NCBI GenBank assembly: GCA_903813345.2
Contig: CAIIXF020000008.1
Span: 12,303,278-12,367,277, forward strand
Length of the DNA: 64,000 bases
Source: Owenia fusiformis
Taxonomy: Eukaryota > Annelida > Polychaeta > Sabellida > Oweniidae
Direction of reading: 5' to 3'
This document shows, one piece after another, positions 8,495-63,679 of this stretch. The notes beneath the pieces were generated by a model. That model worked only from the letters and a program-made list of their open reading frames with translations, searched no databases and was not told the DNA's origin. The position numbers and the translations under genes were made by a program. Each line of letters starts with the position of its first letter. Position 1 is the stretch's first letter.

Positions 8495-8541
8495 ACAATT
8501 TCCTAGAGGTGAAGGGGCTATAGGTGCTACTGCAGCGACTG

Positions 8542-13622: not shown

Positions 13623-13651
13623 TGTGTTGATTAGTAATACAATATTCGAAA

Positions 13652-32656: not shown

Positions 32657-33114
32657 TTAGTCACTTACTGCCATGCTGCCAACAAGGCCAGATTCATTGT
32701 AGATACATCCGTCACAGGTAGGATCATCTTCATCATCGATCAGCTTCGATATCTTATCATCATGCGCCAGATTAATAAGACTGTCACCATCACTACGTGT
32801 CGCAACTGATCTCCGGCTCGCATGTGTTGGATCTATATAAACAGCTGTTGAACCAGATTGCCGTGAAGAACGATTGCTTGGAGAACGAAGAATTTCCGTT
32901 GTTGCACCACTTCTATTGCACAAACTGACAAAATACCGAAATGTGGACATATTTTGACGTGCCTGGAGTGGCATTCGTTGTGTGATATAAGTCGCACTTC
33001 TAGAAGCGTTTTTTAGGCAGAATACGAGGCAAACTAGTAGAATGAGTAAAGCGATGATTGAAATCGATGATATAAACCAGACCTCCTTGTAAAATGGGAC
33101 CTGAGGCACAGTGG
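32657..33114 (-). other. Gene B exon 12: transmembrane helix and cytoplasmic tail
   Basis: Counterpart of the gene C exon, with one codon fewer (Ser absent before YITQ). It encodes the hydrophobic helix beginning VWFISSISIIALL, then KNASRS and a Ser/Arg-rich tail with the same DDEDD patch. TAA is at 32657-32659. The tail is conserved between the two copies with few replacements, which argues that it is translated. Confidence 0.75.
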
Positions 33115-36100
33115 CTGGAAGAAAAATAAACACATTTCATAATACAATTAACTATTTGTGTGGAATAAATAATGTAAGATAGACCTGAAAACTCGATTTA
33201 TTCTGAATGTTATTTAATTTCTTTCAGGGAATACAAAGTGTGGTGCCTGTGTCATCCTTTTACGTATACTTATTAGGGATGGATTCCCCGTTCCGACAAC
33301 GGTAGCACTTGAAACTGGAATATATTCTAATGAAATTATGGTTCATGAAGACATGCGATTACAACTGCTTACAAATATTTCTGTGAAACACTGTTTTTGA
33401 CTTGGCAGACATGTTCATATGTGTTTTTACAGTATTTGTTGTAACTCGTGATGCAATAGAGCGATTTTGTTGACATTTCATCTGATTTATATATTTTTAT
33501 GAGATACAGATAGAAATTGATATTGTATTAAAAATATTGTAAACAATGGAACATTAATTGCGACACATTAACCATCGTAAAAATAAGATCTCATTTATGT
33601 ATGCATATATTTTAAACCTTATAATTTACATTAACCATCGTCTATGGACCATGGCATAATGCTGTCAATAAACTAATACGTTTCATTTTAAAATACGTTT
33701 CATTTTTCAATCGTTTTCTTTTCGGGGAAGCAAGGGCAGAGGGAGAGGCACGGGCAATTGGTGATTTCTTGGCACTTTTAAAGTGTTAAAATTGACAAAT
33801 ACAACTTTAAAAAATTTCAAATTTTTTTTTTCAAAGGATTGGTATCGATATGGCGAACTGAATTGAACACTTGTTTCTCATAAAAAACACATCATCAATT
33901 TAATGGGGGAAGGTAGTACCAGAGGGGGGGGGGTTGTTTTCATTAACTGTATATCTGATAAAAAGGTACTGTATATTGAACTTGATTTCCACTTTGGATC
34001 CATACTTTCCAAGGGGAGGGGGGAGGGGCGTTTCCAAGGGGGCGTAACGGTTTGGGGTGAACCTTTTAAGAATTTTGTTTTTTAGAGATTGAGTTTTTAG
34101 GTGCTTATTTTGTTTAAACATATTTCATTAAATTATTAATCAGACGAATATAGTTTTAATTTATTTACAGTATGATTCTATCGCATGCATTATGTGAGGT
34201 AAGCTGTGATGAGAAATGGAGATACTTATTACAACATATTGCCCAAAAGTCGGGGCCTTTGACCAACATACCTTCTATCTGGATCTGTCTACTCGCTCTA
34301 CCCGTAGAACTTCTGAAAACAACTATAAATATAAATAACATTATCAAATACTATTTAAGGTATGCTATATCATCATGAGACATACTAAAGCATTCTGACT
34401 TATTCATAGGTGAATGGTAGAATAGCTTTCCAGGACAAAATTTACAAGACGATTCCTCAACTTTAGGTGAGAAAGCTATTATTCTTAAGAATACCAAGAA
34501 AACCTCGATATGGGGATTGTCAAGACTCTTACTCCTATTTTCTTCTTACAATGGGTAGGATATAATATCTATTTTTTGCTTGCAATGGGTGAGATATAAT
34601 ATTTATAATAACGACTTATCATTTCTTTGAAATAAAAGTAAAACCCAGAGTTGATGGAGTTGATTGTTTAAATGTCACTTTGTGTCTTTAGATATGGGTT
34701 AGAGTCAATTAGTAAAACAACTCACATAGTCCTGAGGTAGATCGTACCAGATGGAGACGATGTAGATGTGAATGTATTCCAAGTGCTACCATCTGTACTG
34801 TACTGTATTGTCTCACCTGGGTAGCCTGTGTTTGCCTCTAATTTACCATCAACGATTCTATAATTATGGAATGCCTTGCAAAGCTAATATTTAAATTTGA
34901 CAAAAAAAATATTTCAAAACGTTATATCTCATAACAGAATCTTGTATACCTTGCTCCAGGCAGGGACACTCTATAATTAATCTGCAATTCCTCTAATCTT
35001 TTCAGCTCCTTATATCCCAAAGTATGTGCAAAACTCTCCCAGTCATAACTCCTCATGGCTTCTCTCTCAGTCTTATCTGAACTGGATTCCCAATCTGCCT
35101 TGTGCCAGGCCCTCTCTGCGAGGGCTATGATCCTGGGAAATATCATATAGTCTAACTGTTCTCCTGTTCGCACAATTTCACTCCATAGTTGACCTTGTAT
35201 ACCTAATAAGTTGGGGACACTTTTGATAATCAATTATATTAATATATACTCTTAAAAACCATGTATTCGACTTTCTAAACCCGAAACGAAAGAAAAACTC
35301 AAACTGTAAATGGATATTCACCATTATTCTCTATTTTTGAAAATATATTCAGTAAACATTTATTAAAAATAATTTCCGAGTAGACAATTGAATTGTTTTA
35401 CTTTCTGCATGCTAGGTGTGAAAATTAACGATACAGAACATCAACGTATTTTGGGAACTCATTTTTGACCCAATGTGTAATTTAAAATACAACTTAACCT
35501 TTTTATTGTCATAAAAATAAATGTAGATACCTAAAATCTTGATTCCTGCCTAAATGCTATACCTGAACAGAAAGAGCCAAACAAAATATCAATTTCTTTA
35601 CCTAATTCAATTTTCTCTACCTGATTCTATCTTTAATCTATTTAGTATGTCAGACCTACCAACTATATTTTCAGGCTTTTCCAAAGGTAGACACCATTCT
35701 GCAGATTTTGCACACTCAGTCTCTTTATTCAGCACCTCACCACTCCTTGTAAAATCTATGTTGTCATGGAGACTATCGGGCATAAAACCAAATATTTTTT
35801 CTGTGTCAACAAAACGTGGACCCCAGTAAGAACCACGCTCTTCTGGATCAGGCTCATAGGGATGGTCAAAAGACGTGTGTGTTGCCTGAGACATGACCGT
35901 CTGGACAAGATGTGATAAGTTTTTTTGGTAACATACGCAATGGATTTACATTACACTATAAACTAAACCAGAATATCAATTACACTGTGTTTTTGGTAAT
36001 TACAACTTCTAGCAGTAAGACAATAGCTACAAATAAAAAGGATGCTCAGTCAGAAGTGTAAAGATTATAGTAATGTAACACATTAGATGTCACAATTCTC

Positions 36101-39100
36101 ATTAGAGGGAGATTTGCGTGGCAATCGCTAACTTACACATCTAAAATACACAAGTATGCATATAATGTTATAATAATACCTTATATCCTGCATTAGCAAG
36201 TTTGTACGCTCTGTTCCCAACACCTAACTCCCAGATATTGTGCCATGTATAGACATACACATCTCTGTTGTTTTCTAACTTTGTGATATCATAAGCAATA
36301 TCAATATTATCGTCCTTCCCAAGTATACCATCCTCCCATGCACCTAGACCATAGCCCTTCATGATACTAGCTGTTCTTTTCACAAAGTACTCCTTCAGAT
36401 CTTGATGACTTGCTACTTCACCTGACTCTATCAACTTCTCACAGGCAGTTGATTTAAGCCATGTACCTTCAGCTACCTGGTCTCCTCCAAATATGAATGT
36501 TTTCAGAGGAGCTATACCTTCATGGAGCTTAACTGTCTCATTAAGGACTTTTTCCATGAAAGCATATGTTGAGTTCAAGCAAGGGTTTACACTATTATCA
36601 GTAAAATATTGATAAGAAAGATACTTGGAAGGATCATCTGGTTCACTTAGAAGATACTGATCTGCTGGACTCCCTTGAATAGGATTAGCTTCAAGCCGTT
36701 TTCTTCTTTGTTCCATGGCTATGATAGCAGCATGACAGTGACCGGGAACATCAATCTCTGGAAGGATCTCTATATGCCTGTCTGATGCATACTGCAGAAT
36801 TTCTCTACAATGGGTCAGGAATACCTGAAGTGAATTGCCGAAACAATATCTTTGAATATTCCTCAGTCAAATTTTACTCTATAATATTTTGAAAAAATTA
36901 GAGTCACCTGTAGTCCTGAGCAGTATAGAAGCCATTGGCAGACTTAAATGAGGTCGGACCAGAGCCAAGTTGAGAAAGAACACAATGCTCCTCTGCAAGG
37001 TCATGGCATCTGAACCCGCCAATCTAAATATCAAAATTATCTGCATTGGTATATATACATTTTATGGATTAGATTAAAACGTCCAAATGGCGTTCGGACA
37101 TTATACCGAAACCCATTATACCGACGCGCATTATACCGAAACCCATTATACCGACGCGCATTATACCGAACCCCATTATACCGACGCGCATTGTACTGAA
37201 AGGCGTTATACCGAATGTCATAATCACTGTTCCACAACTAGTTACTTTGACGGAACGTCAATGTAACAAAATGGATGAACTTTCTGGTTACGATTTTTTG
37301 CTTTCTCGATTTAAACCTACTAATAAGTCAAGTAACAGATTACAATTTGGCCCAAAGCTAGAAAATATAGCATAGTTTTAATAAGATTCTTCGATTTGGA
37401 ATTTATTTTGTAAATGAAGCTGTAATTCATATACTGAGCCCCTCGCTTTTGTTACATTGACGAAAGCCTGTCGTATTACCAATGTATGTTACTTTGTCAA
37501 TGGGGTTTTAGCCCGACCATTTTTAGAAAACTTGAAAATCTCTAGAATTTGAATAAAGATAAATGACAGTGCAAAAACTAAGTTGTTTTGATATAGAGAA
37601 TTACACACAGAATTCAAATAGAAGAAAAAATGCAGATCTCCTAAAATCTCATTAAAACGAGACCTTAACGAGATTTCAAAGCTATATGGAAAAGCTGCTA
37701 TTAGATAGATGCCTTCACTTGGCTATTCTCTGTAGCGAGTGTAAATTCTTTTCGGAAACATGATTATGTTTTCCCTGTAATATGAATTGGAGATATCTGA
37801 CAAATATGGATAGCCTAAAATATAAATTTAGTGTTTTTGAACATGCGGAAATATCCTGAACACTTTGAACCTGAAGTACAGTTCCTATTAATAGGTCGTT
37901 CAGTTTTCTTGTTTTTGTTCTATATAACACTTGTGTTTAATAGCCACGCGTAATTATTAATAAGCGTTATCAGATTATTTCAAGCGTTGAAATAGCTTAT
38001 TTTCCTCGACTTATCTACACAAACCTATTCACTTACCGTAATAGTGAGCGTCAATTATAATTGTTTTCACTCATCGGCTTTAGTATTTCATTCATTTGAG
38101 ACGCAATTGATATATTGGCAACAAATCAAATGTTCTAAATGATTCTTCTTCATTTTGGAATGTTTCCCCGACCCGATATTCAAAGATGTGTCTTAAATAT
38201 TATACTTTACATTGATCACGATTCTTGTACTTTCTGTCTTTACGACTCCCGTTCACATTTGCAAGAGTTGTTGATTGCATTGCCTTGATCGTTGGTCGAA
38301 CTTCGATTCCAACTAAATCAAATTAATCAATTAAGAAATGTAATATCATGTTTATCCAAGCAAATAATTGTAACAACTACATTATTTTTTAGCAGTTTTG
38401 ATACCTAAGCAGGGTAGCCTAGTGGCGTAGACTGAGGCTACTTTGCGGTTGAACGTCGTGGGATACGGAGGTCCCGCGTTCGAGCCCCAGGTACGGAGTT
38501 GTTGATCATTGTCACTACGGACACCCGGTCCGAAGGTCCAACCGTTTACCGGCCCTTGGCATGGGTTGGTTCTCTGGCCGCTCTTGCCGGGGACAGATTG
38601 TGAGACTGTGGTTGGTTCCTCCACTAACGTGCTTTAGTAAACTCCGGGAGTCATATAGTATGGTAGCGGGCCCCCACCAAGGGCAGTAGTGGAACGACGC
38701 GAATCGGTCCCAGTATGGTTGCCTTGCAACTGAAGAGACTCGAGGAAATCATGCCATTCGCAGTGACCCAGAAAAGACTTTTGATTCTTAATTTGACGTT
38801 TTAATTCATTTATTTACATACTTTATTCATATTACATTCCAGGCAGTTATGGTTTTTATTGGTCAAAATGAATGAACGAGACATATAGATACTATTAAAT
38901 ACATCTAGATAGTATCAAAACTATAATTCGATTTGTCGAACATATATAAAATAACACTTGAAAACACAACACACATAGCTGCAATATCCGTAGCATTTGG
39001 CACAGTTGTTTCCCACGCTCTATCATTTTGTGTGGTCATCATAAGATAAGGACGTACGGTTGATTGGACCATGGTCTTTCAACAGCGTCAAGAAATTGGC

Positions 39101-42100
39101 ATGGATACTTTGAGAAACGAGGTAGCCACAAAAGGAAACATCGGAAATAATCCAGAAATGTCCACACCATTGTTTTCGTTAGTTATGGCAAGGCCCCGGA
39201 GGAAAAACAGCATTCGTGGGTAGCTTAATTTTTGTACCAATTAGAGCCATGGCTTAAACCCAACCAAGAACGAGGGAGCAAAGTCACTATGGGTCCCAGT
39301 TGAGAATCAGTTCAAATCAAAATCAAATTGAGAATCAGACGACCTGCTAAGTCTAGTATAGATTTGCCCCTAACATAGTTAATGAGCACCATTTTAAACT
39401 GCCAATAAAAACATGTATTCAATGTTTCAAAATAATGGAACTGAAATATTGGGCAAATAATTGATATTTCGTTTGTGGAATGAAAACTGATGATAGAGAT
39501 AATATCAGTCGCCAAAAACTATATAAGCAATTTAAACATGGAAATGATGCCATTTTAGAAGTATTATATGTAAAGAAATGTTTGTGAAATGGTTAGAAAA
39601 TGAAATAACTTCAGAATTAATGGGACCATTGAGGCACACATTGATAAAAATCACCCTTGGATTTGGAAAGATTTAAAGTAAAACAAATGAATGCGTTTCT
39701 TACTATCTCCGTGACAACATATCTTGCTCTCTCTCCATGACAACAATATCGAAAATACAGTAATTATCAAGTTCAATAAGAAATGTGAAACTTTATATTT
39801 AATAGCACAATTATTCATTTCTACCAATGAAACAATACAGTATAAATAAATGTTTACTTCATTGAATACAGAATTTACCACGGTTAAATATATTTTATGA
39901 AGTACAGGGTTTACCATAATCAAACATAAATAACAGAATTATGACTTTATCCTCTATGAAATACAGAAATTGATGATTAACTGGAATTCAGTTTGTTGAG
40001 ACGACCCCTCAATCCAAAACGCCTAGCACCAGTTAAAAAATCTCTGGCCGCAACTGAGATGTAAAGATGTTCAAAGATTTTAAATTAAGCTTTATCTAAA
40101 AATATGTTTTTGCACGATAAACGTTTAATTGAATATGAATATATAAACAACAGATTGACATTCAGTCTCATATTAAAAAAGTTTAAAGTCAAAATATTGT
40201 GGAAGTAAATAAAAAATTTAATTTTCAAGACTTGTCTGTTCAATAAAAAAATCATGTATAATTTGAACCAAGGTGTATGATAAAGTAATATATAAACTAT
40301 CTATTTTATATGCTGGTACAGTAGACTTTCTCTTGACTTTTCCCGATGTAAAGATATAGTCCCACGCGGAAGTGCACGTCACAAAACTGATGGGTTAAGG
40401 CAATGTGCCGTCCCACTGGCACGGATTTCGGTACAACGCGCATCGGCATAATGGGTTTCGGTATAATACGCGTCGGTATAATGAGGTGATCCCGTAAAAA
40501 TATTTGTCCGATTTTATTTAATTACAAAGCACTATCTATATGAGGAGAAAATTAGAGAGTTCTAACACCCTGTACAGTTGTATTTACCTCTGTGAGTTCT
40601 GGAAGGCCCTGAATCTCAAGTCTCCATCCTTCATCATCAGTTAGGTGAATGTGGAGTTTGTTCATCTTATAAAGGGACATGCCATCGATGAGTCTCATTA
40701 TATCTTCTTTACTGTGGAAGTTCCTAGCCACATCAACATGCATACCTCTGTAGTTATATCTGAAAAACATACTCATAATGCAGGAATAATTCTAAATTCA
40801 GTACCTACATGTAGTTCATAGGTCAATTAAGTTAAATTCGACAAGGATGGTGTTTCAGCCTTATCATAAATAGGCAATTCCACTCACATTCAACCACAGG
40901 CACGTTCGAGCTAGGCGATTGGGCGCCGTAACCACGAGGTTGCGAGTTCGAGACGCGTGTGCTCCTTGTGTTTATTTATTTGTGTATTCACTACAAAAAA
41001 CTTTGTCTCGCCATAAAAATACTTATCAAATTAAATATAAAAATTTCAATCAGCTGAACTGACCTAGGCTGATCACTTAGTGTCACAGCAGGAATACTCC
41101 CATTGGTACCATCGTGGATACTTATAAGCGACTGGACAGCCCAGAATACACCTGTAGGACTCTTGCCCTCTAGGGTAATCACCTGGCTACTTGTGTCAAC
41201 TACAAGTGTGTAAGCTTCACTGTTACTGTTGGTTTGGCCATCCACAAGCAAGTTATTGTTAACTTGGAGCAGTACATACTTAGAGCTTGGAGTAACTGTA
41301 GTTGTTCCCATTGGCAGTTTTTCTGAAACATTATTTTTTATTAGACTTCTTTAAATATGCACGTTTTCTTATTATTGTTTTGTTACTTTCATTTGTGTAT
41401 CTGTATATGCTTTCCTAATTTCACTTGATATCATACCTGATAGATATTTAGCTTCTTGTTGCAAATTATCCTTTATCACTATGACCCAGTCTCCAGTTGA
41501 TATGGAAACAGTCGATGTGTCATCTACCTCTACTTTGACAGGTGTTGGGAGAACTAAGTGTTGAGCAGCACCAAGATCATCTTGGACAGCATTGATAGTG
41601 AATCGCTTCTCAGGGGTATAGGGATCATACCTAGAAAAATAATAGTACCATAATTATAATAATGTAAATGTACATGTAATGTAAATATCCGAATAGTTTG
41701 GTTTTGAATTCATGAAATCATTGTAAATAACAATGCCGGCAATACATTTTTTATGTTGAAAGTGGTAGGTTTGATTACACGAGCTCTAAACATTTTGAAG
41801 GAGACATCGAAGTAATACATACTTGTCACTTTCGTATCGTTTCCATTTCTCAGTCGAATCAAATGCAGAAACAAAGTCAAGATCTTCGGAGGCTGTACTT
41901 TGAATTGTACGGGGCTCAAGACCATCCGCTGCCACATACCAATTGGGCATAGTATCACTTCGAGAAACCATCCAGTCTCCAGCAATGAACGAAATTTCAC
42001 GTGACTCACCAGCAGTAATATCTTTAAATGTAGCCGTTGGCTCTACTTTAAACAAGCAGCCATTTACATGGGACCATTTTGCACCGGTATTGGGGTCAGT

Positions 42101-43802
42101 GTATCCATACGGGTCGTCTATGTAATTGCCATGATATATTTTTGACTCTTTTATTAACTTTATATGGCAAAAGTATATGGCCCATGCATCATTGGTGATA
42201 ACCTTTTGGCCAGAGTTCGTCAAGGTGATTTTTCCTGTATACGTGGCATCATTAGGCTTGAAGTTAGTGACAACTTCATATGTGATATCTAGATTGTCAG
42301 CAATGTAGTCAAGTTTTCGCTGCGTGAGGGCCCCATCTGTAAAAATTTAAAACGTTTCAGTTTGCCATTCATTCATAACACAATTAGGGAGTTCCCGGAT
42401 TACCATTTGACTACAGAAGGTGTTCATATTGACACAGGCAGATATGATATGCCAATTAAAGTGCTGAAAGTATGTAATCTAAAAGATAAGTATTGAATTA
42501 AACTGCAGGCACTAAAATATTGAGTTAGTTACTCCGTTACTTGTTACTTTAAAAAAATTCAACCACAACACGATTGACTTTGAACATGAAAAAGCTGAAA
42601 ATGACTTTTTGTCAAATGGTAGATAGAGTAAAAACCGAAAACCGTAATTCCGAGAGATTTTGAATCTTCAGAGAACACAGCAACTACTAACATTTATTAT
42701 TTATTAGAAAGTTCTACTTTAACAAAGTGTCTGATATTTTAAAAAATTGTCTTTTTTTACGTCAAAGTCGGAATTTTTTTGAAACCTGCTAAACTTGGAA
42801 AATTGGCGATAACGTGTCAAATAGCCACTATGTATATACATAAATTGAATATAGATATGACTTTGTACGAATAGCAATTTTAAATTTGTGTCGCAAATGC
42901 TGACGGTAGGACAGACCAACGGACGGACGACTAGTTCATAGGCTCACTGTATGAGCCAAAAATTATTTGTACTTTTCAAAACCCAAGGTCAATCAAAAAC
43001 AAGGCCATCGGACACCCGACACGTGTGTATGTCATCGTGAAACTGCCCTACGACATAGCTATGGCCTGTCTAGTTCTAATGCAATCTAGAAAGAAAATCA
43101 ACTGTTGGCATAAGATACATTGAAAACTCGAGTTTTCGCGAGTTTCGCATTTTATGATGCGAGTTTCGAATCATATAGGAGTGTCACATTATGTGGTTCG
43201 ATTTCACGGCTTGTTTATTCCATAATACTATTGTTTTCCCAGGGAAATATGAAGGAATAATCGTATTGAATCGCATTTCATGAAAAATCGTATTGTCCCC
43301 GGGAGAAAAATCGTATTGGAGCGTATTACATGAAAAAATCGTATTGTCCCCGGGAAAAATTGTATTGGAGCATATTAAGCTATTTTCGGTTTCCCGGTTA
43401 TTTTTTCCCGTTTATTTGCATTATCCAAATGTAGAATTTTAGAGGGGTGTATTATGGAATAAAAAGGTTAATTTTGGTCAGGATTGAATATGGGTTTTAT
43501 TCCTCGGAAAATATGACATTGACACTAGGTCACTGCACTACCTCGGTCAATATCATATTACCCTTCGATCAATATCATATTGTCCCACGGAATAAAATCC
43601 ATATTCAATCCCTCTCAGTAAATAACCTATATCTATTGTCCAATTCTAAATGAATAAATTCCATAGTACTGTATGTGATTATACTCGATTAGGAAAATAT
43701 CAAAACTGCAGCTTTAAGTCATTGAATTATTAAATGCTCACCTATGACTTTAACTACATCCAGTGCAATCGCTGTTAGTAGCAAAATTAGGTAAGCTGCC
43801 AT
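32657..43802 (-). CDS. Gene B: membrane-anchored GH20 chitobiase-like protein, tandem paralog and likely chimera
   Basis: Twelve exons: 43742-43802, 41823-42336, 41437-41630, 41064-41322, 40588-40759, 36908-37023, 36180-36804, 35660-35900, 34950-35202, 34726-34857, 34272-34312, 32657-33114. They total 3066 nt in frame (1021 residues). Exon lengths and phases equal those of gene C except for small indels: one codon in exon 2, nine bases in exon 10, one codon in exon 12. The start MAAYLILLLTAIAL is a signal peptide. The domain order is the same as in C, with a helix at about 881-903 and a 118-residue tail. The catalytic motif is again IFGGDQ (D547-Q548). No frameshift or stop was seen, so the gene looks functional as a protein. 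Introns 1-5 resemble gene A where A is visible. Introns 7-11 resemble gene C, and intron 6 does not, pointing to a recombinant origin. Intron 5 (3.56 kb) carries an old inserted element. Confidence 0.85.
36180..36804 (-). other. Gene B exon 7: GH20 active-site exon with Asp-Gln; likely recombination site
   Basis: Same length and frame as the gene C exon. The Gln codon is CAG at 36477-36479. The first ~90 nt (36717-36804) differ from gene C at several positions, and the preceding intron 6 is unrelated to C intron 6. The remaining ~540 nt differ at only a handful of positions, and the following introns align with C. This switch marks the inferred A-type/C-type junction. Confidence 0.75.
37088..37216. 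repeat. Inverted cluster of the CGGTATAATGCGCGT repeat (gene B intron 5)
   Basis: About four tandem ~30-bp units containing CATTATACCGACGCG, opposite in orientation to the cluster at 40428-40485. The two bound about 3.3 kb missing from gene C intron 5. Confidence 0.7.
38402..38770 (+). mobile_element. tRNA-derived SINE candidate (copy in gene B intron 5)
   Basis: Nearly identical to 2178-2545, with the same A-box-like and B-box-like motifs. It sits at the orthologous position of the duplicated intron. Confidence 0.5.
40428..40485. repeat. CGGTATAATGCGCGT repeat cluster (gene B intron 5, right end)
   Basis: Shorter version of the cluster at 22650-22775, immediately before sequence shared with gene C intron 5. 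Confidence 0.65.
40897..40978 (+). mobile_element. tRNA-like SINE fragment in gene B intron 4
   Basis: An A-box-like TAGGCGATTGG and a B-box-like GAGTTCGAGAC are spaced as in a tRNA. The ~80-bp segment is absent from the matching place in gene A (near 23161), so it inserted after the duplication or was lost there. It is not a folding tRNA gene as far as can be judged by eye. Confidence 0.5.
43481..43611. repeat. 131-bp palindromic MITE in gene B intron 1
   Basis: Same termini and position as the gene A copy at 25630-25760. Confidence 0.6.
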
Positions 43803-44137
43803 TGTCGCTTGCTTTGACTGCTTGAATGCCCTATGTCAAACGCAATACATTCTAAATGTTACATAGTTTGAGCATCGACTCTAGGTTAACTGTCTCATTA
43901 AAACAATAATCGAAGATCAAGGTCTATTATATGCGTATATTATCGAGCATTATTTTTATTTTTATTGGATTGTTGGTTTGTTTACGAAATATACATCTAT
44001 GTGATTGATATGTATTAATTGAGAGTTAATAACGAGATTGAACCAACGCTGACATTTTTAACACTCATAACGAAAACTCGTGTTCATTTTTCCCGTTTCC
44101 CGTTTTGCCTCAGTCTCACGTGTCGTCCAGGTGCAGA

Positions 44138-48783: not shown

Positions 48784-49939
48784 TTTTAAAACATTTGCGA
48801 CTCTAACATAGATGTGACTCTTAATTAAAACTTCATTAATTTTAACAATGAATGACATCAATGAAATTCAACAATGACTGTGAATCTTATATTAATTTAT
48901 TTCACAATTGTTCTCACTAGTGGAAAGTCCAAAAATATGTCCTGTTTAAGAACCATATTTTTATTACTATGAACCGTTAGATATTGCTCTACTAGTTCTT
49001 GTATTTAAAGCAAATCGCTTGCAGATTTAGAAAAAATTGGGGATTTCAGCAAGGGGCGATTTTCAAAAATTATCTAACAATATTTTTAGAAGAAATTTCT
49101 ACACAGTATAGACAATCGTTTCATATCAGCTATATCGAAGACCTTATAGTGCCAGATAAAATCAAAATAAAGTTTGTCAAATGTTGTAATCATCAAATTT
49201 GATTTTTGATGACCTTCCTATTGGCTATCATCATTTTTTTCTGTTGGTGAAAATGGAAAACAATTGTTATATAGACATCTAGAATATAGTAAATAAGGCT
49301 GTTTAAACAACTAAATGATATGTAATTATTGTTAAAATTGTTTTACCAGTGGAAAGCAAGAACGGTTTAAAAATATAATTAGATAAAAATACGTTACAAA
49401 ACATTTTTTCGGAAAATTTAGAATAAGAAATAGACACTTCTTATACCCTAAATAACTTTTATGTGCTTAAATAGATTGACCTGATTATAGCCAAAATGAA
49501 TTAATAAATGAGCATATTATTTATCCTAGAGGTAAAGTGTGTAGTTACTTCAAAAGAGAGTATAACTTAGTAAAAGGCAAGTCTCGATTTGAAGAACAGT
49601 CTACTTTGACAATAATTTTTTATTACACCCATATTAAATTATGAATATTCAAAAAAGAATATTTGAAGTAATGTGTAAAAACTGTCCAAAGCAGGCGTAA
49701 CGTGCAATATACCGATTCAATAAATGACTCGGTTTGGAGAACGAAGTTCATCAGTCTACTTCGCTAATATTTTTTAATGAAAAATAACACCCAAATAAGA
49801 TTTATGGATATTCAAAAGTGGACATTTCAGTAGCTGATGAATTTCGTTCTTCAAACTGATACTAGTCTTTTATAAATTGAATTTTCGTAAGATGTTTTGC
49901 AGGGCCCCTGTTTAAGTCAGATACTAGTGCATGTTTGAC

Positions 49940-50944: not shown

Positions 50945-51405
50945 TTAGTCACTTACTGCCATGCTGCCAACAAGGCCAGATTCATTGTAGATACATCCGT
51001 CACAGGCAGGATCATCTTCATCATCGATCAGCTTCGATATCTTATCATCATGCGCCAGATTAATAAGACTGTCACCATCACTACGTGTCGCAACTGATCT
51101 CCGGCTCGCATGTGTTTGATCTATATAAACAGCTGTTGAACCAGATTGCCGTGAAGAACGATTGCTTGGAGAACGAAGAATTTCCGTTGCTGCACCACTT
51201 CTATTGCACAGACTGACAAAATACCGAAATGTGGACATATTTTGACGTGCCTGTAGTGGCATTCGTTGTGTGATATAACTAGTCGCACTTCTAGAAGCGT
51301 TCTTTAGGCAGAATACGAGGCAAACTAGTAGAATGAGTAAAGCGATGATTGCAATCGATGATATAAACCAGACCTCCTTGTAAAATGGGACCGGAGGCAC
51401 AGTGG
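50945..51405 (-). other. Gene C exon 12: transmembrane helix and cytoplasmic tail
   Basis: The acceptor is followed by a short linker, an uninterrupted hydrophobic stretch of about 23 residues starting VWFISSIAIIALL, then a basic stop-transfer segment (KNASRS). A Ser/Arg-rich tail with an acidic DDEDD patch follows, ending in MAVSD and TAA at 50945-50947. The layout is that of a type I membrane protein. The last codons overlap a good donor (GTAAGT), so a further exon cannot be excluded. GH20 chitobiases are usually secreted or periplasmic. Confidence 0.75.
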
Positions 51406-54400
51406 CTGGAAGAAAAATAAACACATTTCATAATACAATTAACTATTTGTGTGGAAGAAATAATGTAAGATAGACCTGAAAGCTCGATTTATTCTGAATG
51501 TTATTTAATTTCTTTCAGGGAATACAAAGTGTGGTGCCTGTGTCATCCTTTTACGTATACTTATTAGGGATGGATTCCCCGTTCCGACAACGGTAGCACT
51601 TGAAACTGGAATATATTCTAATGAAATTATGGTTCATGAAGACATGCGATTACAACTGCTTACAAATATTTCTGTGAAACACTGTTTTTGACTTGGCAGA
51701 CATGTTCATATGTGTTTTTACAGTATTTGTTATAACTCGTGATGCAATAGAGCGATTTTGTTGACATTTCATCTGATTTATATATTTTTATGAGATACAG
51801 ATAGAAAATTGATATTGTATTAAAAAATATTGTAAACAATGGAACATTAATTGCGACACATTAACCATCGTAAAAATAAGATCTCATTTATGTATGCATA
51901 TATTTTAAACCTTATAATTTACATTAACCATCGTCTATGGACCATGGCATAATGCTGTCAATAAACTAATACGTTTCATTTTAAAATACGTTTCATTTTT
52001 CAATCGTTTTCTTTTCGGGGAAGCAAGGGCAGAGGGAGAGGCACGGGCAATTGGTGATTTCTTGGCACTTTTAAAGTGTTAAAATTGACAAATACAACTT
52101 CAAAAAATTTCAAAAATATTTTTTCAAAGGATTGGTATCGATATGGCGAACTGAATTGAACACTTGTTTCTCATAAAAAACACATTATCAATTTAATGGG
52201 GAAGGTAGTACCAGAGGGGGGGGGGGGGTTGTTTTCATTAACTGTATATCTGATAAAAAGGTACTGTATATTGAACTTGATTTCCACTTTGGATCCATAC
52301 TTTCCAAGGGAAGGGGGGGGGGGGCGTTTCCAAGGGGGCGTAACGGTTTGGGGTGAACCTTTTAAGAATTTTGTTTTTTTAAAAGATTGAGTTTTTAGGG
52401 GCTAATTTTGTTTAAACATATTTAATTAAATTATTAATCAGACGAATAAAGTTTTAATTGATTTATAGTATGATTCTATCGCATGCATTATATGATGAGG
52501 TAAGCTGTGATGAGAAATGGAGAGACTCATTACAACATATTGCCCAAAAGTCGGGGCCTTTGACCAACATACCTTCTATCTGGATCTGTCTACTCGCTCT
52601 ACCCGTAGAACTTCTGAAAACAACTATAAAAATAAATACGATTATCAAATACTATTTAAGGTATGCTATATCATCATGAGACATACTAAAGCATTCTGAC
52701 TTATTCATAGGTGAATGGTAGAATAGCTTTCCAAGACAAAATTTACAAGACGATTCCTCAACTTTAGGTGAGAAAGCTATTATTCTTAAGAATATCAAGA
52801 AAACCTCGATATGGGGATTGTCAAGACTCCTACTCCTATTGTCTCCTTACAATGGGTAGGATATAATATCTATTTTTTTGCTTGCAACGGGTGGGATATA
52901 ATATTTATAACTAGACTGTGGAAATTGAACAAGTTCAATTTCATACTCCAGATGACAGATTTGTCATGACCTGACTAGACGTGAGTGATGACCTGACTTA
53001 TAACATATCTGATTACCTGACTGATGACATGACTGATGTCCTGACTGATGACCTGACTGATGATCTGACTTGTCACCTGACTGATGACACGACGGATGAC
53101 CTGACTGATGACTTAACTAATGACCTTACTAATGACCTGACCGATGACCTGACCTGACTGATGACATGACTGATGAATCGATTGGTAACCTGACATATGG
53201 CCTGACTGATGACCGGACTGATGACCTGACCTGACTTGACTGACAATGGTATTTTTCAAATATTGTTTTTAATACTTTTAATACTTTTTCCAAAATTTCA
53301 AAATGTGTACCAGAAGTGAAATTGCAATTCTGATTTCAGATTCGGCATCCCGAAAAACTTTTGAGAAATGTTTTTGCCACCTTTAAACACTGGATTTGGA
53401 TAACTTTTTAGTTGACCTACTGTCTGGATACTTTATCTTAAAACCGGGTCAAAATTCCTTTAGACGGCGAATGGCTAACACTATAAGCATAATTTTTTCA
53501 AAAATACTAAACACCCATTCTCAATAAGAATGCAAAATCGATGTCCCAGGGCTCAATCTCAGCATTTACATTACGAACATCACTTTTTGTTGTATATATA
53601 AATAGTACATATGACCCTCTACCTAGCACATATGTAATATATAATTTCTCAGTTACACCTATTTTATTATATGTACTAGAATAGGGCTATTCATCAGTTA
53701 CGTGACTGTCGCCATATCAAAAATCAGGATTGTATGGTGCCATTAGAACACTTTTCATGCGTTACATCCCATATAAAGTGGTGTTTCATACACAGGACGA
53801 TCCCAGCTTCTGGTTAAATGACAGAAACTATCATTTTGACATATTTACCATGTTGAAAATGTTCCTTGACAAATGTCGCCAGACTTTTTTATATCAACCC
53901 CCTTGTGCTATAAATCATATAAAAACTGGTGAAAAATTAATGTTTTATATGTGCCATATTCGTATCTGGATTCCAATTTGAATACTTAATAGAACGTCGT
54001 ACAAGTTGATATTTGAAACGTTGAGATTTGGGGGCCAGAAAATTATAATTCCCGTTTTTCATGAAGTTATAGATAAGAAAATCATTTACGTGATCATAGT
54101 TTCCACAGGCAATAAGTGTCTGAGCATATTAATGTTATATCACCTTATTGTATGGTAGGAGTGACCCTGGCTGATCAGTATTTTTAACTAAATTGACATT
54201 GTTTGAATATAATACAGCCAGCAAAAGGGTATTTGCATCATTTACGACACCATCATTTACGATACCTAGTAGTACGAAAATAACGGTTACCATACTCCTA
54301 GCTCTGAATAAAGTTTATAAAGCGGGAAATTTGAGTATCCATATTCATTTGAATCTGAATAAAGAAACACTACCACCTTTTTAGAGTAAATCCACACAAT

Positions 54401-57400
54401 TTAACGTATATATCACACCTAATATAGTATCTCTCTTGTTAAAAGAAGATGTAGTGTTAATTTGATGTTATCTATGGCATAAACACAGTCGGTATAAATG
54501 TGAAAATGAACATAAAAACACTTTTCTATCATTCATTTTGAAGTGAACCTATAGTCTTGCGTTTTCTATGTCATAAATTACGTTACCCATGGTAACGTAA
54601 TTGATAAATTCTATTGCACACATTTTCTATCGTCAAATCTTTACAGATATGTTCATTTATCAACTTGTACTTTGCGTAGATGGGAAAGCATCCTGCTGAA
54701 ATTCAAGAAGACTATCGTGATAGGAAAAAAGCACCAAATAGAGCGTGCTCGGGTTCATAAATGCATTGTCTCAATAGCTGCGTGCACTATCTGAAAAGAT
54801 AAAGACCATAAAAGAAAAAAATATGTCATTGCGTCCGAGACATGTTATGTTAGTCTCAGATAGCGTAATAATACAGGAGACAAATCAAAAAGAAGAAAAC
54901 TGTTAGCACAGTGTAGCAATGACCCAAGTAGGCTTAATGCCGATAACAATGATTGTGACCGTGTTTATGGCAGTGGTACAAGTAACACACAATTTATAGT
55001 TCATATTAATTTTGCCTGGAATTTTGCAAGAGGACATGCATGGCTCTTTAGAAAATGGATAAGTAGAACTTGGGGACGTACGTAGCCATAAGAAAACAAA
55101 GCTCCCTGAACATAGATAAACAGGGACAAAACAATCACAAATCATTCCCAAGGATCTTACAGAAGCAGAGAAAAATAGAATGAAGGGTCCAAGCACGCCA
55201 AAAACACCAAAGAGTGCAGGGGAAAAGTGATGCGATGCAAACTTTAGCATAGTGATATCCCTAGAGTTGATGCCTGAAAAGTGTTCAAGTCTAGTTGATA
55301 TAATATTACTAAAGGCGATGGAAGATGATACAAGCTTAAGGGCCTTGCCTGGCTTGACAAAAATGAAATGAGTACTCGACGTTTACCACAAGCAAAGGAA
55401 TATTTTGTTGAAGCAAATAAACAGTGTTAAAAGTGCACCGCACAAAATGAAACGAACCAGGAATGACATACAAGAAGAGACAACCAAGAGTATTCTGACT
55501 GCGGACTGAGAGTGGAGATAAAGAGCTACATCTTGGCGATTTTTTTCACTGCAGTTTACAATACTGTTGGTATGTCGAAAAGGCACTGCATGTGATACTG
55601 ATGATGATAAATACTATTTTTTAGGAAAAGAAGAATCTCCAATGGTCTCTAGAATGTTACGTTATTTGGCTGAGAGTCTCAGATTTTGAGTGTGTAGTAG
55701 AAGAGTCAATCCCAACAGGGAAGTTTAAAGGGCTATTTAAACTCTAGATCTGTGTCCTGAGATTTAAACTCATGTTCTATGGGATCTATATGTCCAAGCT
55801 AGGATTTAGAAACGTTTTCAGGAGTTCATATGTACCTATGATATAAGAGTAGACACTGAATGTTGTTACTTTTTGACGATAATCACAAATTATATAGTAT
55901 AGTTTTGATCTTGTGATTGTAAGTTTTGTAATCACTTACGTTACAAAGGATTTAGCATTACAAATGTGTGAAGAAAGGTTATGTCCTTTTAATCCTGTAT
56001 ATATTCATTCCAACATATAGCGTATGTGACAATATATTAATTCATTACGTGTTTTGTGCATAAATAATGTTTGTGTTAGCTTTAATGTTTCTATTGCAAA
56101 AGTTAGTTAATTTCACCATCATTTACGTTACATGATGGTCCACAGAACTATGTTTTTTAAATGTTACTATTGGTTAAAATGTAGTGTAAACATGATAAAA
56201 GAAGCACCAGTTGATGGTTTAACCATGATCACATATGATATGACTCATTCTACGATGTTACTTTTTTGGATCATATACGTTACCAAGGGTGTAACGATAT
56301 ACAAATCTCAAATACATTTTGTATGGCATATCAAACACCAAGATACGGCTATCATTTTATTCCGAACACTATTTCTAATCAGAAAAGAAATATAAATTTA
56401 ATGTTATCAAACTGAGTTTTTATAAAGTTGGAATGACATGTAGCACTTAGGTTCTGTTTGTGAAAAGGAATAATAAGTCACATTTTAATTGTTGACTTCA
56501 ATGTGAATTCTTTCCACTTGTGTATCTTCAAAATGCCTGATGTATGATTTAGTATTAAGACAAAATATATCCTTATTGTTAGGAACAAAAACAGACATGA
56601 GAATAATATGTTGAATGAAAATATAGGTCTCTTGCTACGACAACCCCCTATAACGTAAATGACAGAGACTTACTTTTTTAAATGAATACTAGATAAGCTT
56701 CAACATGTGACTTTTCCATGAAGGGGTATGAGATTGATGAAGATATTTTCACTTTAGATACTTAACATATATTCAAATAGAAATACATCAACTTTAAACC
56801 ATTTAAAGCTACTTTAATTTTTGTCAGATTCATACCTGGAATTTGCATTCTTATTGAGAATGGATGTAAATATTTAAGTGTAGTGTCAGGATCGTGAAAA
56901 TAAGAAAAAATCATAGATTTTGACCTTGGCATTCAAGTGTCCAGATTTTGAATTAGGATAGCTTTACTGGTCCTATAACTATTGTAGTTAAAAAAACTGA
57001 ATATAGTCCCAACACAATTGTGATGATGTCGAGTCTATGAGCTCATATATTGGTACAATTGTCATCTTTTTGCAATGACAATATGCGATTCTTCTAAAGT
57101 GTGTTTATTTAGGTAATCTGAAGGACAATTTGGAGTCAAATGGCGTATTAATTTTGGCTTTATTTTTTAAGAATTTCAATCTGTGGCAGCAGAGGGAGGG
57201 GGTAGTGTTCAGTGCAAAATGTGACGTTTTAATCCACTGACCAATAATAAGGCAAGTTTGGCGACACATCTGTCTTACGCATTGTCCATATAATACTAAA
57301 TACACGTGACACTAGGCATGATTGTGATACCTTGGCTTCAATCTGAGTAGCGTACACTTCGTTCTGCATTCCGCAATTGTTAGTTTGATGAAGGAAATCG

Positions 57401-60400
57401 TATTTATTTCTCGTACCATTTCGTTTGGGGAATTTTTGATGGAGGAAGGTGAAGTTTCGTAAGGTTGTCAATGTCATACGAAATTTTCAAATGCTTTTAA
57501 CCAGAGAAAATAATTGGGCGATTTAAATTTGATTTTTAGTTCTGGAATGCTCGGGATGTCTTCTTTCAAGGCAGATAGACAGTGTTGTTAAATATTTCTG
57601 GGAGGCTTTAGATATGAAAATAGATCAAATACGAAATGCTTTTTGTATTTAACCTTTAAAGGTTCCTCGAATTTCAGACAAAACTATTTAATACAGTACA
57701 AGTATTGGCGAACCTGACAAATCGACCAAAACTTCGACCTTGACATTTGAGCTCTCAACATTTTAGAATAAGTTGGATTGAAATTTGATATTCGGATTCC
57801 TAAAAAGATTCTACAACCCTAACCCTGTAACCGTAACCTCGTCTCTAACCCTAACTCGGAGCTAACCCTAACTCTGGTTCTAATTCTAACGCTAATCCTA
57901 AAGCTGTCTCCAACCCTATATGGTTTTTGCTCAAATAACGTTTTTTGGGCAAATAGAGCACCTTTCCATCTTCAGGGGAGACCTTCAAACACTTTATAAC
58001 TAATGGCCCGATTTCAATTTGGTTGACAGTTCTGAAATCCTCAGGATATTTGCCTTCGCGACAATTTAGTGATATTTGAATTTAATATTCTGCGATCACG
58101 AAGGCCCCGGGGGACAAAACACTGAAAATATTATTCCCCTTATTGAGCTTTGAATATTCTGACACCAACACCAATACACACGTAAAAGACTAAATTATAA
58201 CTCTAACCCTAGCTTTAACGATCGGGCTAGTTTAACTCTAATCCCAACCCTAAACCTAACTGTAGCTCAAGGACTAACCCCAATACAAGCTCTAGCCCCG
58301 ACCCTGGGTTTAACTATAATCATAGTTTTAATCCCTTAGCTTTCATCCTGACACAAATCTAAAAATTAACTCTTTCAATTCGGATAATCTTTGAAAATAA
58401 CGATTTACTAAAACGTATAGAAGCTTTAAAGGAATGCTTTCCCCGAATTTTAGACGAAAATATTGAAGTGTAAGGCGTCTATCGGCAAAACTAATGAAAT
58501 TACATAGATTGTGACCTTGACCTTAAAGCTTAAAAATTTTGAGTTTACTGACATTTTTAGGTCTCTAATGCATCGTTTTTATCTATATTAAAGTGAAAAT
58601 TATGATTTTGAAAAGTTGACATTTTTCACTCTAAAAGGCCGTAGAAAGTCAACGGGTCGTCGGATTTCAATTCGGTTTGTAGATTCGGAATCCTGAGAAA
58701 ATTTCCCATTATTTTGACACTTAACACGTTGAATTTGGAGAACTTTATTTTCTGACCTTCTTTCCGGACGACATATCTCAAAATTGGGAAGAGTAATCGA
58801 AAAAAGGTCCCCAAGGTTTTTTATAGGTTATTTCAAAGGAATGCAATGGAACATAAATCGAGACGTAAAACTGAAAAATAGTGGAGAAAACTGGAAAAAT
58901 TACGTTTTGACTTAGTTTTTGACCTTTGACCTAGATAAAAAATTGACCCAATTTACCATCGACTAGGCCTCTAACCTTGATAAACCATATACTTGTCTTT
59001 ACTGGAGACCTCATAGTTTCTGAGAAAACTTGGTTAGAAAAATAAAAATAAGAAAAAGAAAAGCTATGAAAACAATATACTCCAGATTTCATCTGGAGTA
59101 TAATAACTCTTTAGATATGGGTTAGACATGTTCGAGTCAATCAGTAAAACAACTCACATAGTCCTGAGGTAGATCGTACCAGATGGAGAAGATGTAGATG
59201 GAGAAGATGTGAATGTATTCCATGTGCTACCATCTGTACTGTACTGTATTGTCTCACCTGGGTAGCCTGTGTTTGCCTCTAATTTACCATCAACGATTCT
59301 ATAATCATGGAATGCTTTGCAAAGCTAAGATTTTGACAAAAAAATTTCAAAACGTTTTATCTCATAACGGAATTTTCACTTATGTATACCTTGCTCCAGG
59401 CAGGGACACTCTGTATTTAATCTGCAACTCCTCTAATCTTTTCAGCTCCTTATATCCCAAAGTAAGTGCAAAACTCTCCCAGTCATCACGCCTCATAGCT
59501 TCTCTCTCGGTCTTATCTGAACTGGATTCCCAATCTGCCTTGTGCCAGGCCCTCTCTGCAAGGGCTATGATCCTTGGAAATATCATATAGTCTAACTGTT
59601 CTCCTGTTCGCACAGTTTCACTCCATAGTTGACCTTGTATACCTAATAAGTTGGGGACAGTTTTGAGAATTAATGATATTAATCATAATCAATTATATTA
59701 ATATATACTCTTAAAAACCATGTATTCGACTTTCTAAACCCGAAACGAAAGTAAAACTCATACTGTAAATGGATATTCACCTCTATTCTCTATTTTTGAA
59801 AATAATATATTCAGTAAACATTTATCAAAAATAATTTCCGAGTAGACAATTGAATTGTTTTACTTTCCTCATACTAAGTGTTAAGGTTTCTTTGTGAAAA
59901 TTAACGATACAGAACATCAACGTATTTTGGGAACTCATTTTTGACCCAATTTGTAATTTAAAATACAATTTAACCTTTTTATTGTCATAAAAATAAGTGT
60001 AGATACCTAAAATCTTGATTCCTGCCTAAATGCTATACCTGAACAGAAAGAGCCAAACAAAATATCAATTTCTTTACCTAATTCAATTTTCTCTACCCGA
60101 TCTTTAATTTAAAGTATGTTAGACCTACCAACTATATTTTCAGGCTTTTCCAAAGGTAGACACCATTCTGCAGATTTTGCACACTCAGTCTCTTTATTCA
60201 GCACCTCACCACTCCTTGTAAAATCTATGTTGTCATGGAGACTATCGGGCATAAAACCAAATGTTTTTTCTGTGTCAACAAAACGTGGACCCCAGTAAGA
60301 ACCACGCTCTTCTGGATCAGGCTCATAGGGATGGTCAAAAGACGTGTGTGTTGCCTGAGACATGACCGTCTGGACAAGATGTGATATGTTTTTTGGCAAC

Positions 60401-63400
60401 ATACGTAATGGATTTACATTTCACTATAAACTGGACCAGAATATCAATACACTACTTTGTTTTTGGTAATTAAGACAATAGCTACAAATAAAAAGGATGC
60501 TCAGCCAGAAGTGACTTTAGATGTCGCAATTCTCATTAGAGGGGATTTGCGTGGCAATCGATAACTTACACATCTAAAATACACAAGTATGCATATAATG
60601 TTATGATAATACCTTATATCCAGCATTAGCAAGTTTGTACGCTCTGTTCCCAACACCCAACTCCCAGATATTGTGCCATGTATAGACATACACATCTCTG
60701 TTGTTTTCTAACTTTGTGATATCATAAGCGATATCAATATTATCGTCCCTCCCAAGTATACCATCCTCCCATGCACCTAGACCATAGCCCTTCATGATAC
60801 TAGCTGTTCTTTTCACAAAGTACTCCTTCAGATCTTGATGACTTGCTACTTCACCTGACTCTATCAACTTCTCACAGGCAGTTGATTTAAGCCATGTACC
60901 TTCAGCTACCTGGTCTCCTCCAAATATGAATGTTTTCAGAGGAGCTATACCTTCATGGAGCTTAACTGTCTCATTAAGGACTTTTTCTAGGAAAGCATAT
61001 GTTGAGTTCAAGCAAGGGTTTACACTATTATCAGTAAAATATTGATAAGAAAGATACTTGGAAGGATCATCTGGTTCACTTAGAAGATACTGATCTGCTG
61101 GACTCCCTTGAATAGGATTAGCTTCAAGCCGTTTTCTTCTTTGTTTCATGGCTATGATAGCAGCATGACAGTGGCCAGGAACATCAATTTCTGGAAGGAT
61201 CTCTATATGCCTGTCTGTTGCATACTGCAGAATTTCTCTGAAAGAGGTGCAAGTTTTACAATTTAACCGAATTTCTCAAACATTTGAGAAATTGAGCATT
61301 GTATAGTTAGTAATACCCTTTAGTTAGTTAGTATAAAATATAGATAATTAGTCAAGCTTTTTCATTTATTTTTTTCTCTAAGCTGTACGATTTGCCAAAA
61401 GTGGGATAAACGTATAATAAAGGTCATGATAATATATGTCATGGGTAATTGGAATTACCTGTAATCCTGGGCAGTATAGAAGCCATTGACAGACTTAAGG
61501 GAGGTTGGACCAGAGCCAAGTTGAGAAAGAACACAACGCTTTTCTGCAAGGTCATGGCATCTGAACCCGCCAATCTTAAAATCAAAATCATCTGCATTGG
61601 TATAGAAACAAGAATATATGTTATGGTGTGGGACAATAAAACATGCGTATTAATCACAAGTACAAAAATTGTCCGATTTCATTTATTTACAAAGCACTAT
61701 ATATATGAGGAGAAAACTAAAGAGTTCTGAAAGCAATATCTATATTATGAGAAGAACATAAGAAGATTCCCAACACTTTTACTTACCTCTGTGAGTTCTG
61801 GAAGGCCATCAATCTCAAGTCTCCATCCTTCATCATCAGTTAGGTGAATGTGGAGTTTGTTCATCTTATAAAGGGACATGCCATCGATGAGCCTCATTAT
61901 ATCTTCCTTACTGTGGAAGTTCCTAGCCACATCAACATGCAAGCCTCTGTACTTATATCTAAATCAACAGTACAACTATAACTCCAACCTTTGTATCAGG
62001 TTCATAGCCCAATGCTCATAACTTTTACAAGTATCCTTTATGGTGAACAAATAGCTAGCTTAATTAAATTTCCACTAAAGGAAGCATCCTCACCCTCCAT
62101 TTTATAAAATTATGAAAAAATGAATTTTGAACATGGTATTTCTAATCTGAACTAACCTAGGTTGATCACTAAGTCTCAAAGCAGGAATCCTCCCTTTGGT
62201 ACCGTCATGGATGCTAATAAGAGATTGGATGGCCCAGAAGACCCCAGAAGCAGTCTTTCCCTCGATGGTGACCACATTGTTGCTTGCATCAACTACAAGG
62301 GTGTGCGCCTCGCTGTTACTGGTAGTCTGATCATCCACAAGCAAGTTATTGTTAACTTGGAGCAAAACATACTTAGAGCTTGGAGTACCTGTAGTTGTTC
62401 CCATTGTCAGTTTTCCTGAAATGATTTTCAGACCTCTATTTATACACGTTTTTGATATTGTTACTTTCATCTGTATTTGATTTCCTAAATATACTTGATA
62501 TCATACCTGATAGATATTTAGCTTCTTGTTGCAAATTATCCTTTATCACTATGACCCAGTCTCCAGTTGATATAGAAACAGTCGATGTGTCATCTACCTC
62601 TACTTTGACAGGTGTTGGGAGAACTAAGTGTTGAGCAGCACCAAGATCATCTTGGACAGCATTGATAGTGAATCGCTTTTCAGGGGTATAGGGATCATAC
62701 CTAGAAAATAATAGTGCCATTATGTTAATACTGTAAACGCCCGACACGTTTGATCTTGCATTCATTATACCATTGTAAATAATCATGGAGAAAATTCATC
62801 ACGTTTAATGTTTGGAGAGTTGGGTTTGATATAAATTGTGTTGACTTGTCCTTTTTGTCTTAATTTTAGGGTGTGATATTGAATTATTGCATTTAAACAT
62901 ATTCAAAGTGTTTTAAGTACATACTTGTCACCTTCGTATCGTTTCCATTTCTCAGCCGAATCAAATGCAGTAACGAAATCAATATCTTCCGATGCTGTAC
63001 TTTGAATCGTACGGGGCTCAAGACCATCGGCTGCCACATACCAGTTGGGCATAACATCACTTCGAGAAACCATCCACTCTCCAGCAATGAACGAAATTTC
63101 ACGCGATTCACCAACAGCAATATTCGTAAATTTGGCAGTTGGTTCGAGTTTAAACAAACAACCATTTACATGGGACCATTTTGCACCAGTCTTGGGGTCA
63201 GTGTATCCATTTGGTTCTATGTACATGTAATTTCCATTGTAGATTTTTGGCTCTTCTATTATCTTAATATGGCAAAAATATATGGCCCATGCATCATTAT
63301 GTATAACCTTATTACCAGAATTCTTAAAGGTGATTTTCCCTGTGTATGTCGCATCATTGGGCACGAAGTTACTGACAACTTCATATGTGATGCCCAGATT

Positions 63401-63679
63401 GTCAGCGATGTAGTCAAGTTTGCGCTGAGTGAGTAAACCATCTGTAAAAATTGAATCGAATAAAACATTCAAAACTGACGATATTGTGCTCGAGTCATGA
63501 AACCCTGGAAATGTTGAAGCTGCCGAATAACCATTCGATATTAGGAAGGTGCGCATTGGAATTTTTAAACACGAACACCTTGATTTTCAAAAAATTGATT
63601 GAATGAATTAACACTCACCTATGACCGTTATTTCACCCAGTACAATCAATGTTAGTAGAGAAACTAGATTAACTGTCAT
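50945..63679 (-). CDS. Gene C: membrane-anchored GH20 chitobiase-like protein, probable pseudoenzyme
   Basis: Twelve exons, all GT-AG: 63619-63679, 62925-63441, 62507-62700, 62157-62415, 61787-61958, 61459-61574, 60613-61237, 60129-60369, 59390-59642, 59158-59298, 52573-52613, 50945-51405. They join in frame to 3081 nt (1026 residues plus stop). The start MTVNLVSLLTLIV is a signal peptide. Exon 2 is the chitobiase N-terminal carbohydrate-binding-like domain, exons 3-4 GH20b, exons 5-9 the GH20 barrel (DVARNFHSKEDIMRLIDGM, HLTDDEGWRLEI, EIDVPGH, HPYEPDPEERG), and exons 10-11 the C-terminal domain. Exon 12 gives a helix at about 885-907 and a 119-residue tail. The GH20 family hydrolyses terminal beta-GlcNAc from chitobiose or glycans by substrate-assisted catalysis with an Asp-Glu pair. 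Here the motif reads IFGGDQ (D548-Q549), so activity is doubtful. A binding or receptor role is inference. Intron 10 is 6.5 kb because of an insertion. Confidence 0.85.
52970..53250. repeat. 12-bp tandem repeat
   Basis: Degenerate array of GATGACCTGACT with several unit variants and lengths. It could be read as a tetrapeptide repeat, but stops and length changes interrupt every frame, so it is treated as non-coding. Confidence 0.85.
57815..58330. repeat. Two stretches of degenerate CCCTAA-like repeats
   Basis: 57815-57925 and about 58190-58330 are rich in CTAACCCTAA and one-base variants, resembling interstitial telomeric repeat but much decayed. They lie within the intron 10 insertion. Confidence 0.55.
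60613..61237 (-). other. Gene C exon 7: GH20 active-site exon with Asp-Gln
   Basis: This 625-nt exon holds the barrel core: EIDVPGHCHAAIIAM (the conserved PGH is present), then KTFIFGGDQVAEGTW, then the conserved WHNIWELG region. In active GH20 enzymes the middle motif is H-x-G-G-D-E, where Glu is the general acid and Asp orients the substrate N-acetyl group. Here the Glu codon is CAG at 60910-60912 (minus strand) and the His position is Ile. Surrounding residues keep the fold signature, so this is substitution and not decay. Confidence 0.85.

What the first reader, a model, noticed from the sequence alone, without database searches (positions are those of the whole stretch)
60910..60912. Catalytic Glu of the GH20 motif is Gln, and the motif His is Ile, in two paralogs
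Seen directly: IFGGDQVAEGTW in genes B (CAG at 36477-36479) and C (CAG at 60910-60912). Established: active GH20 enzymes use H-x-G-G-D-E, with Glu as general acid. The rest of the barrel and all exons stay open and conserved, so the proteins are maintained without the standard acid. Inference: a family of membrane-bound chitin or glycan-binding pseudo-hexosaminidases.
Basis: partly seen in the sequence, partly recalled or inferred. Interest (0 to 1): 0.75.

Follow-up and report, generated by a model that had tools for sequence, protein, structure and literature searches.

The report
Membrane-anchored inactive chitobiase-like gene pair
Two neighbouring genes of an unidentified, probably animal, genome encode a membrane-anchored relative of a chitin-digesting enzyme that has lost key catalytic residues but keeps most of its sugar pocket, so it probably binds sugar chains instead of cutting them.

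Summary
In detail: Gln (CAG) stands at the general-acid position in genes C (60910-60912) and B (36477-36479), and Ile replaces the motif His. I rebuilt both genes: 12 exons, all 11 introns GT-AG, 1026 and 1021 aa; leader, CHB_HEX, GH20b, GH20, CHB_HEX_C, one membrane helix, tail of 118-119 aa. Gln aligns with Glu540 of Serratia chitobiase. Other published sugar contacts checked (R349, D539, W616, W639, D671, W685, W737, E739) are intact. In 80 bacterial relatives the three lost positions are H, E and Y in 80 of 80. B-C divergence shows constraint in the catalytic exons (omega 0.22). Best reading: a membrane-anchored pseudo-chitobiase that binds GlcNAc-ended glycans; inactivity is well supported, binding is inferred. 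Caveats: the catalytic exons lie in a recently homogenised tract, so B and C are one event, not two; no animal relative could be compared. Inactive glycosidases acting as lectins or receptors are known in GH18 and GH1; my nine paper searches listed no GH20 case. New variant of a known kind.

The parts
50945..63679 (-). Gene C, 12 exons: 63679-63619, 63441-62925, 62700-62507, 62415-62157, 61958-61787, 61574-61459, 61237-60613, 60369-60129, 59642-59390, 59298-59158, 52613-52573, 51405-50945; 1026 aa
   Evidence: Gene model built by hand, all 11 introns GT-AG, frame open to the stop; Pfam domains; no transcript seen
32657..43802 (-). Gene B, 12 exons: 43802-43742, 42336-41823, 41630-41437, 41322-41064, 40759-40588, 37023-36908, 36804-36180, 35900-35660, 35202-34950, 34857-34726, 34312-34272, 33114-32657; 1021 aa
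   Evidence: Gene model built by hand, all 11 introns GT-AG; no transcript seen
22870..24477 (-). Gene A, exons 2-5 only (24477-23964, 23789-23596, 23482-23224, 23041-22870); the rest probably lies beyond the left edge
   Evidence: tblastn, model; window 1-2647 matches intron 5 of B
60910..60912 (-). CAG, Gln549 of C, position of the general acid Glu540
36477..36479 (-). CAG, Gln548 of B, same position
60925..60927 (-). ATA, Ile544 of C in place of the motif His
36492..36494 (-). ATA, Ile543 of B in place of the motif His
60340..60342 (-). TCT, Ser658 of C in place of Tyr669
35871..35873 (-). TCT, Ser657 of B in place of Tyr669
50945..51405 (-). Exon 12 of C: membrane helix and cytoplasmic-side tail (119 residues)
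   Evidence: Hydropathy peak 3.16 over 19 residues
32657..33114 (-). Exon 12 of B: membrane helix and tail (118 residues)
   Evidence: Hydropathy peak 3.02 over 19 residues

Best explanation
B and C encode a type I membrane pseudo-chitobiase: an extracellular four-domain chitobiase body on one membrane helix with a tail of 118-119 residues. Shown by sequence: the proton donor Glu is Gln, the Tyr that contacts the -1 sugar is Ser, the motif His is Ile, while Arg349, Asp539, Trp616, Trp639, Asp671, Trp685, Trp737 and Glu739 remain. Inferred: hydrolysis is lost or trivial. Inferred: the kept pocket binds non-reducing GlcNAc ends (chitin oligosaccharides or GlcNAc-ended glycans), so the protein works as a surface lectin or receptor, the tail linking it to the cell.
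For: Four chitobiase domains in C; best solved relatives 9joq (E 1.6e-198) and Serratia chitobiase 1qba (E 9.1e-149). Q, I and S at positions that are E, H and Y in 80 of 80 relatives, with 12 other active-site columns that are invariant in the 80 all kept. In VhGlcNAcase, Glu438 to Gln cuts kcat from 28 to 0.13 per second while Km goes only from 92 to 120 uM (PMC8098473 Table 4, passage); E438A/Q kept under 5% of activity (PMC4752478, passages). Constraint after the loss: GH20 part of exons 6-9 omega 0.22, bootstrap 0.09-0.52; about 11 of 24 differences nonsynonymous against 77% expected, p 0.0008. One C-terminal hydrophobic helix in each protein.
Against: Binding was not tested, and Km is not an affinity. 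Tyr669 is itself a -1 contact (PMC8098473 table), so its loss may weaken binding. Further changes lie near the pocket: Arg454 to His (R in 79 of 80) and Val493 to Tyr. The excess of losses at active-site columns is not significant (3 of 15 against 7 of 84, p 0.10). Few B-C differences in the tail (3 synonymous, 3 nonsynonymous; omega interval 0-1.7), so no constraint is shown there. No transcript and no animal relative were seen.
Confidence: 0.58

Rival explanations
1. A pseudoenzyme whose partner is a protein, not a sugar: a klotho-like co-receptor, or a regulator of an active GH20 enzyme. Pocket residues persist mainly for fold stability.
For: Loss of Tyr669 as well as Glu540 and the motif His could spoil sugar binding; GH1-like klotho proteins are a precedent (PMC7828330, passages).
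Against: Twelve active-site columns invariant in 80 relatives are all kept, among them four Trp, Arg349, Asp671 and Glu739, more than needed if the sugar site were idle; but fold constraint could also explain this.
Confidence: 0.25
2. Still an enzyme, weak or with altered substrate or mechanism, for example another acid group supplying the proton.
For: Asp539 is kept, and a Glu lies three residues after the Gln (GGDQVAE), a position that is not Glu in any of the 80 relatives.
Against: The Tyr contact and the motif His are lost too. E438Q of VhGlcNAcase has 0.35% of wild-type efficiency (PMC8098473). No structure was available to see whether the later Glu could reach the sugar.
Confidence: 0.08
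3. Decaying gene copies or an assembly artefact.
For: The window holds large near-identical duplications, including 2329 bases at 99.96% (44137-46465 and 46460-48788), and retroelement ORFs.
Against: Full-length frames with GT-AG at all introns; whole-CDS omega 0.27, p about 5e-17. B and C align at 92.2% over one stretch (2171 columns) and 97.4% over another (2060 columns), so they are distinct copies. His to Ile needs three base changes.
Confidence: 0.05

Closest known systems
Chitobiase of Serratia marcescens (PDB 1qba) and the GH20 enzyme of PDB 9joq
   Same: Same domain order over the aligned part and 54% identity to 9joq in the catalytic region; most sugar contacts shared
   Different: They have Glu, His and Tyr where B and C have Gln, Ile and Ser; B and C add a membrane helix and tail
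Four-domain chitobiases of bivalves (PMC7747718, passages)
   Same: CHB_HEX, GH20b, GH20 and CHB_HEX_C; tandem paralogues in an animal lineage
   Different: The word 'catalytic' and the word 'transmembrane' do not occur in that text, so active-site state and anchoring could not be compared; sequences were not held
GH18 chitolectins / chitinase-like proteins (PMC1945033 and PMC7828330, passages)
   Same: Glycosidase fold that lacks the catalytic Glu and is thought to act as a lectin
   Different: Another family and fold lineage (GH18); no shared ancestry claimed
Klotho proteins, GH1-like (PMC7828330, passages)
   Same: Inactive glycosidase-like ectodomain that serves in a receptor
   Different: Another family; its ligand is a protein with a sugar-mimicking motif

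Membership tests
GH20, chitobiase architecture | CHB_HEX, GH20b, GH20 and CHB_HEX_C domains in this order | tested here: met
   Gene C, all four above the Pfam cut-off; gene B not scanned but aligns along its whole length
GH20, chitobiase architecture | Catalytic Asp-Glu pair | tested here: not met
   Asp kept, Glu is Gln in B and C; E in 80 of 80 relatives
GH20, chitobiase architecture | Tyr669 equivalent at the -1 site | tested here: not met
   Ser in B and C; Y in 80 of 80 relatives
GH20, chitobiase architecture | Hydrolase activity | not testable with these tools
   Needs an assay
Pseudoglycosidase lectin | Loss of an essential catalytic residue in a maintained protein | tested here: met
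   Residue loss; purifying selection
Pseudoglycosidase lectin | Sugar binding | not testable with these tools
   Most pocket residues kept, which is not a binding test
Type I membrane protein | N-terminal leader and one membrane helix near the C terminus | tested here: met
   Exactly two hydrophobic stretches above 1.6 over 19 residues in each protein; no dedicated predictor run

The most novel reading that the evidence does not exclude
A GH20 counterpart of the GH18 chitolectins: a lineage of membrane receptors whose chitobiase ectodomain became a permanent GlcNAc-end sensor through the same Glu-to-Gln change that biochemists make by hand, signalling through the conserved tail.
Probability: 0.25. 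Interest if true: 0.72.

Novelty: new variant of a known kind. Interest (0 to 1): 0.5.

Why it matters
Glycosidases that turned into lectins or receptors are documented in GH18 and GH1. A natural GH20 case would extend this to the chitobiase family, members of which sit in mollusc shells. It also gives a natural Glu-to-Gln protein on a membrane anchor whose ligand can be tested directly.

Tried and rejected
Own-genome and relatives searches could not run, since no whole genome is held for this window; the organism stays unidentified and no animal relative was compared. No tRNA (bacterial settings) and no Rfam match at gathering score. The viral-contig scan confirmed 0 relatives among 92 pattern matches.

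Papers: nine searches listed no paper that I recognised, from title and start of abstract, as reporting a naturally inactive GH20 protein. Six of the nine listings were capped below the number of papers found (capped at 10-15; the others listed all they found, none): strictly, five capped, four complete. Eight papers were opened, all by passages only: PMC4752478, PMC7747718, PMC4449183, PMC2492878, PMC8098473, PMC7828330, PMC10211241, PMC1945033. PMC10211241 (pseudoenzyme review) held none of my five glycosidase and lectin terms. The inactive constructs of PMC4449183 are engineered truncations.

Rescue by RNA editing was rejected: CAG to GAG needs a C-to-G change, which no editing system that I recall makes. 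An alternative exon was looked for and not found in the window. An enrichment test for losses at the active site gave p 0.10 with 15 columns that I chose; I do not rely on it. A first conservation count used 54 of 80 loci because my motif filter dropped 26; it was replaced by all 80. The 80 are the best of 233 confirmed relatives, gammaproteobacterial by their titles and my knowledge of the genera, so the control is narrow.

Full report
What is there. The window (33-40% G+C in 4-kb steps) carries on its minus strand three chitobiase-type genes in a row. C and B are complete; A shows only exons 2-5. C and B have 12 exons each, GT-AG at all 11 introns, and frames of 1026 and 1021 aa. C matches Pfam CHB_HEX, GH20b, GH20 (E 9e-92) and CHB_HEX_C. 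Each protein has two hydrophobic stretches, the N-terminal leader and a helix near the C terminus, which is followed by 119 (C) or 118 (B) residues. The introns show a eukaryote; an animal is my inference.

The observation. Gln is at the general-acid position of both genes at the stated coordinates. HMMER and MAFFT put it on Glu540 of Serratia chitobiase and on the Glu of GGDE in 9joq. The motif His is Ile. A third loss, not in the finding, is Tyr669 to Ser. Contacts listed for Serratia chitobiase with chitobiose in a table of PMC8098473 (passage) are Arg349, Asp539, Glu540, Trp616, Trp639, Tyr669, Asp671, Phe672, Trp737, Glu739 and, at +1, Trp685. All but Glu540, Tyr669 and Phe672 are kept; Phe672 is His in B and C but also in 9joq. 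Other changes near the site: Val493 is Tyr in B and C, and Arg454 is His (R in 79 of 80 relatives).

How unusual. In 80 bacterial relatives (the best 80 of 233 confirmed) the three positions are H, E and Y in 80 of 80. Of 84 GH20 columns invariant in all 80, C departs at 7: H544I, E549Q, M601L, D637N, Y658S, Y693H, A696I; B has the same residues. Three of the 7 are active-site positions. Against the 15 invariant active-site columns that I counted this is not a significant excess (p 0.10). The case rests on which residues are lost, not on that test. The relatives were picked by patterns outside the catalytic motif, so they were not selected for Glu.

Selection and independence. Over 1021 codons B and C differ with dS 0.148, dN 0.040, omega 0.27 (bootstrap 0.20-0.35); in the GH20 part of exons 6-9 (363 codons) dS is 0.057 and omega 0.22 (0.09-0.52). 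There 10.5 of 24 differences are nonsynonymous (11 used in the test) against 77% expected, p 0.0008. A against B and against C over exons 2-5 gives omega 0.24 and 0.26. Both copies carry the losses, so this constraint most simply acted on the inactive form. But exons 7-12 are 95.7-100% identical and introns 7, 8, 9 and 11 are 88-98% identical, while introns 1, 2, 3, 4 and 6 are 50-78%. The catalytic exons were homogenised recently, by duplication or conversion, so the shared Gln counts as one event.

Mechanism. In VhGlcNAcase the same Glu-to-Gln change lowers kcat from 28 to 0.13 per second while Km goes from 92 to 120 uM (PMC8098473 Table 4); an earlier study found under 5% activity (PMC4752478). 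That is the pattern of a protein that still takes the sugar but hardly cuts it, with the reserve that Km is not an affinity. B and C also lose the Tyr that contacts the sugar at -1, which makes inactivity likelier and binding strength less certain. I commit to a membrane-anchored pseudo-chitobiase that binds GlcNAc ends (0.58). Inactivity alone I put near 0.9; binding and receptor function are inference.

Comparison with the known. Four-domain chitobiases are known in molluscs and occur in shells (PMC7747718, passages). An independent bacterial origin of divergent animal GH20 genes has been argued (PMC2492878, passages); whether B and C belong to that clade was not tested. The nearest relatives that I could compare are gammaproteobacterial, at 47-54% identity in the catalytic region. 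GH18 proteins that lack the catalytic Glu are thought to be lectins (PMC1945033, abstract passage), and a review names natural pseudoglycosidases of GH18, GH1 and GH33 in the passages I saw, none of GH20 (PMC7828330; 12 of 20 places shown). Hence: new variant of a known kind, moderate interest.

Noticed in passing
2647-19748: About 17 kb present in intron 5 of gene A and absent from intron 5 of B: B's intron matches the window up to 2647 and again from 19748.
   Followed up: partly
10912-13603 and 16837-19495, flanking 13631-16489 (+): Two direct repeats of about 2.7 kb, 98.8% identical, flank a 953-aa frame with aspartyl-protease matches and a weak PNMA match below its cut-off; the repeats contain internal tandem repeats. 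It looks like a retroelement with long terminal repeats.
   Followed up: partly
6857-9492 (-): Two neighbouring open frames: reverse transcriptase (RVT_1) and a CCCH zinc finger protein.
   Followed up: partly
44137-46465 and 46460-48788: Head-to-tail copies of 2329 bases at 99.96% identity, a recent duplication or an assembly artefact.
   Followed up: no
62507-62700 and 41437-41630: Exon 3 of C and B is 99.0% identical although introns 2 and 3 beside it are 69.5% and 78.0% identical, which suggests a short conversion tract.
   Followed up: no
17-1074: A 530-base unit repeated head to tail without a difference.
   Followed up: no
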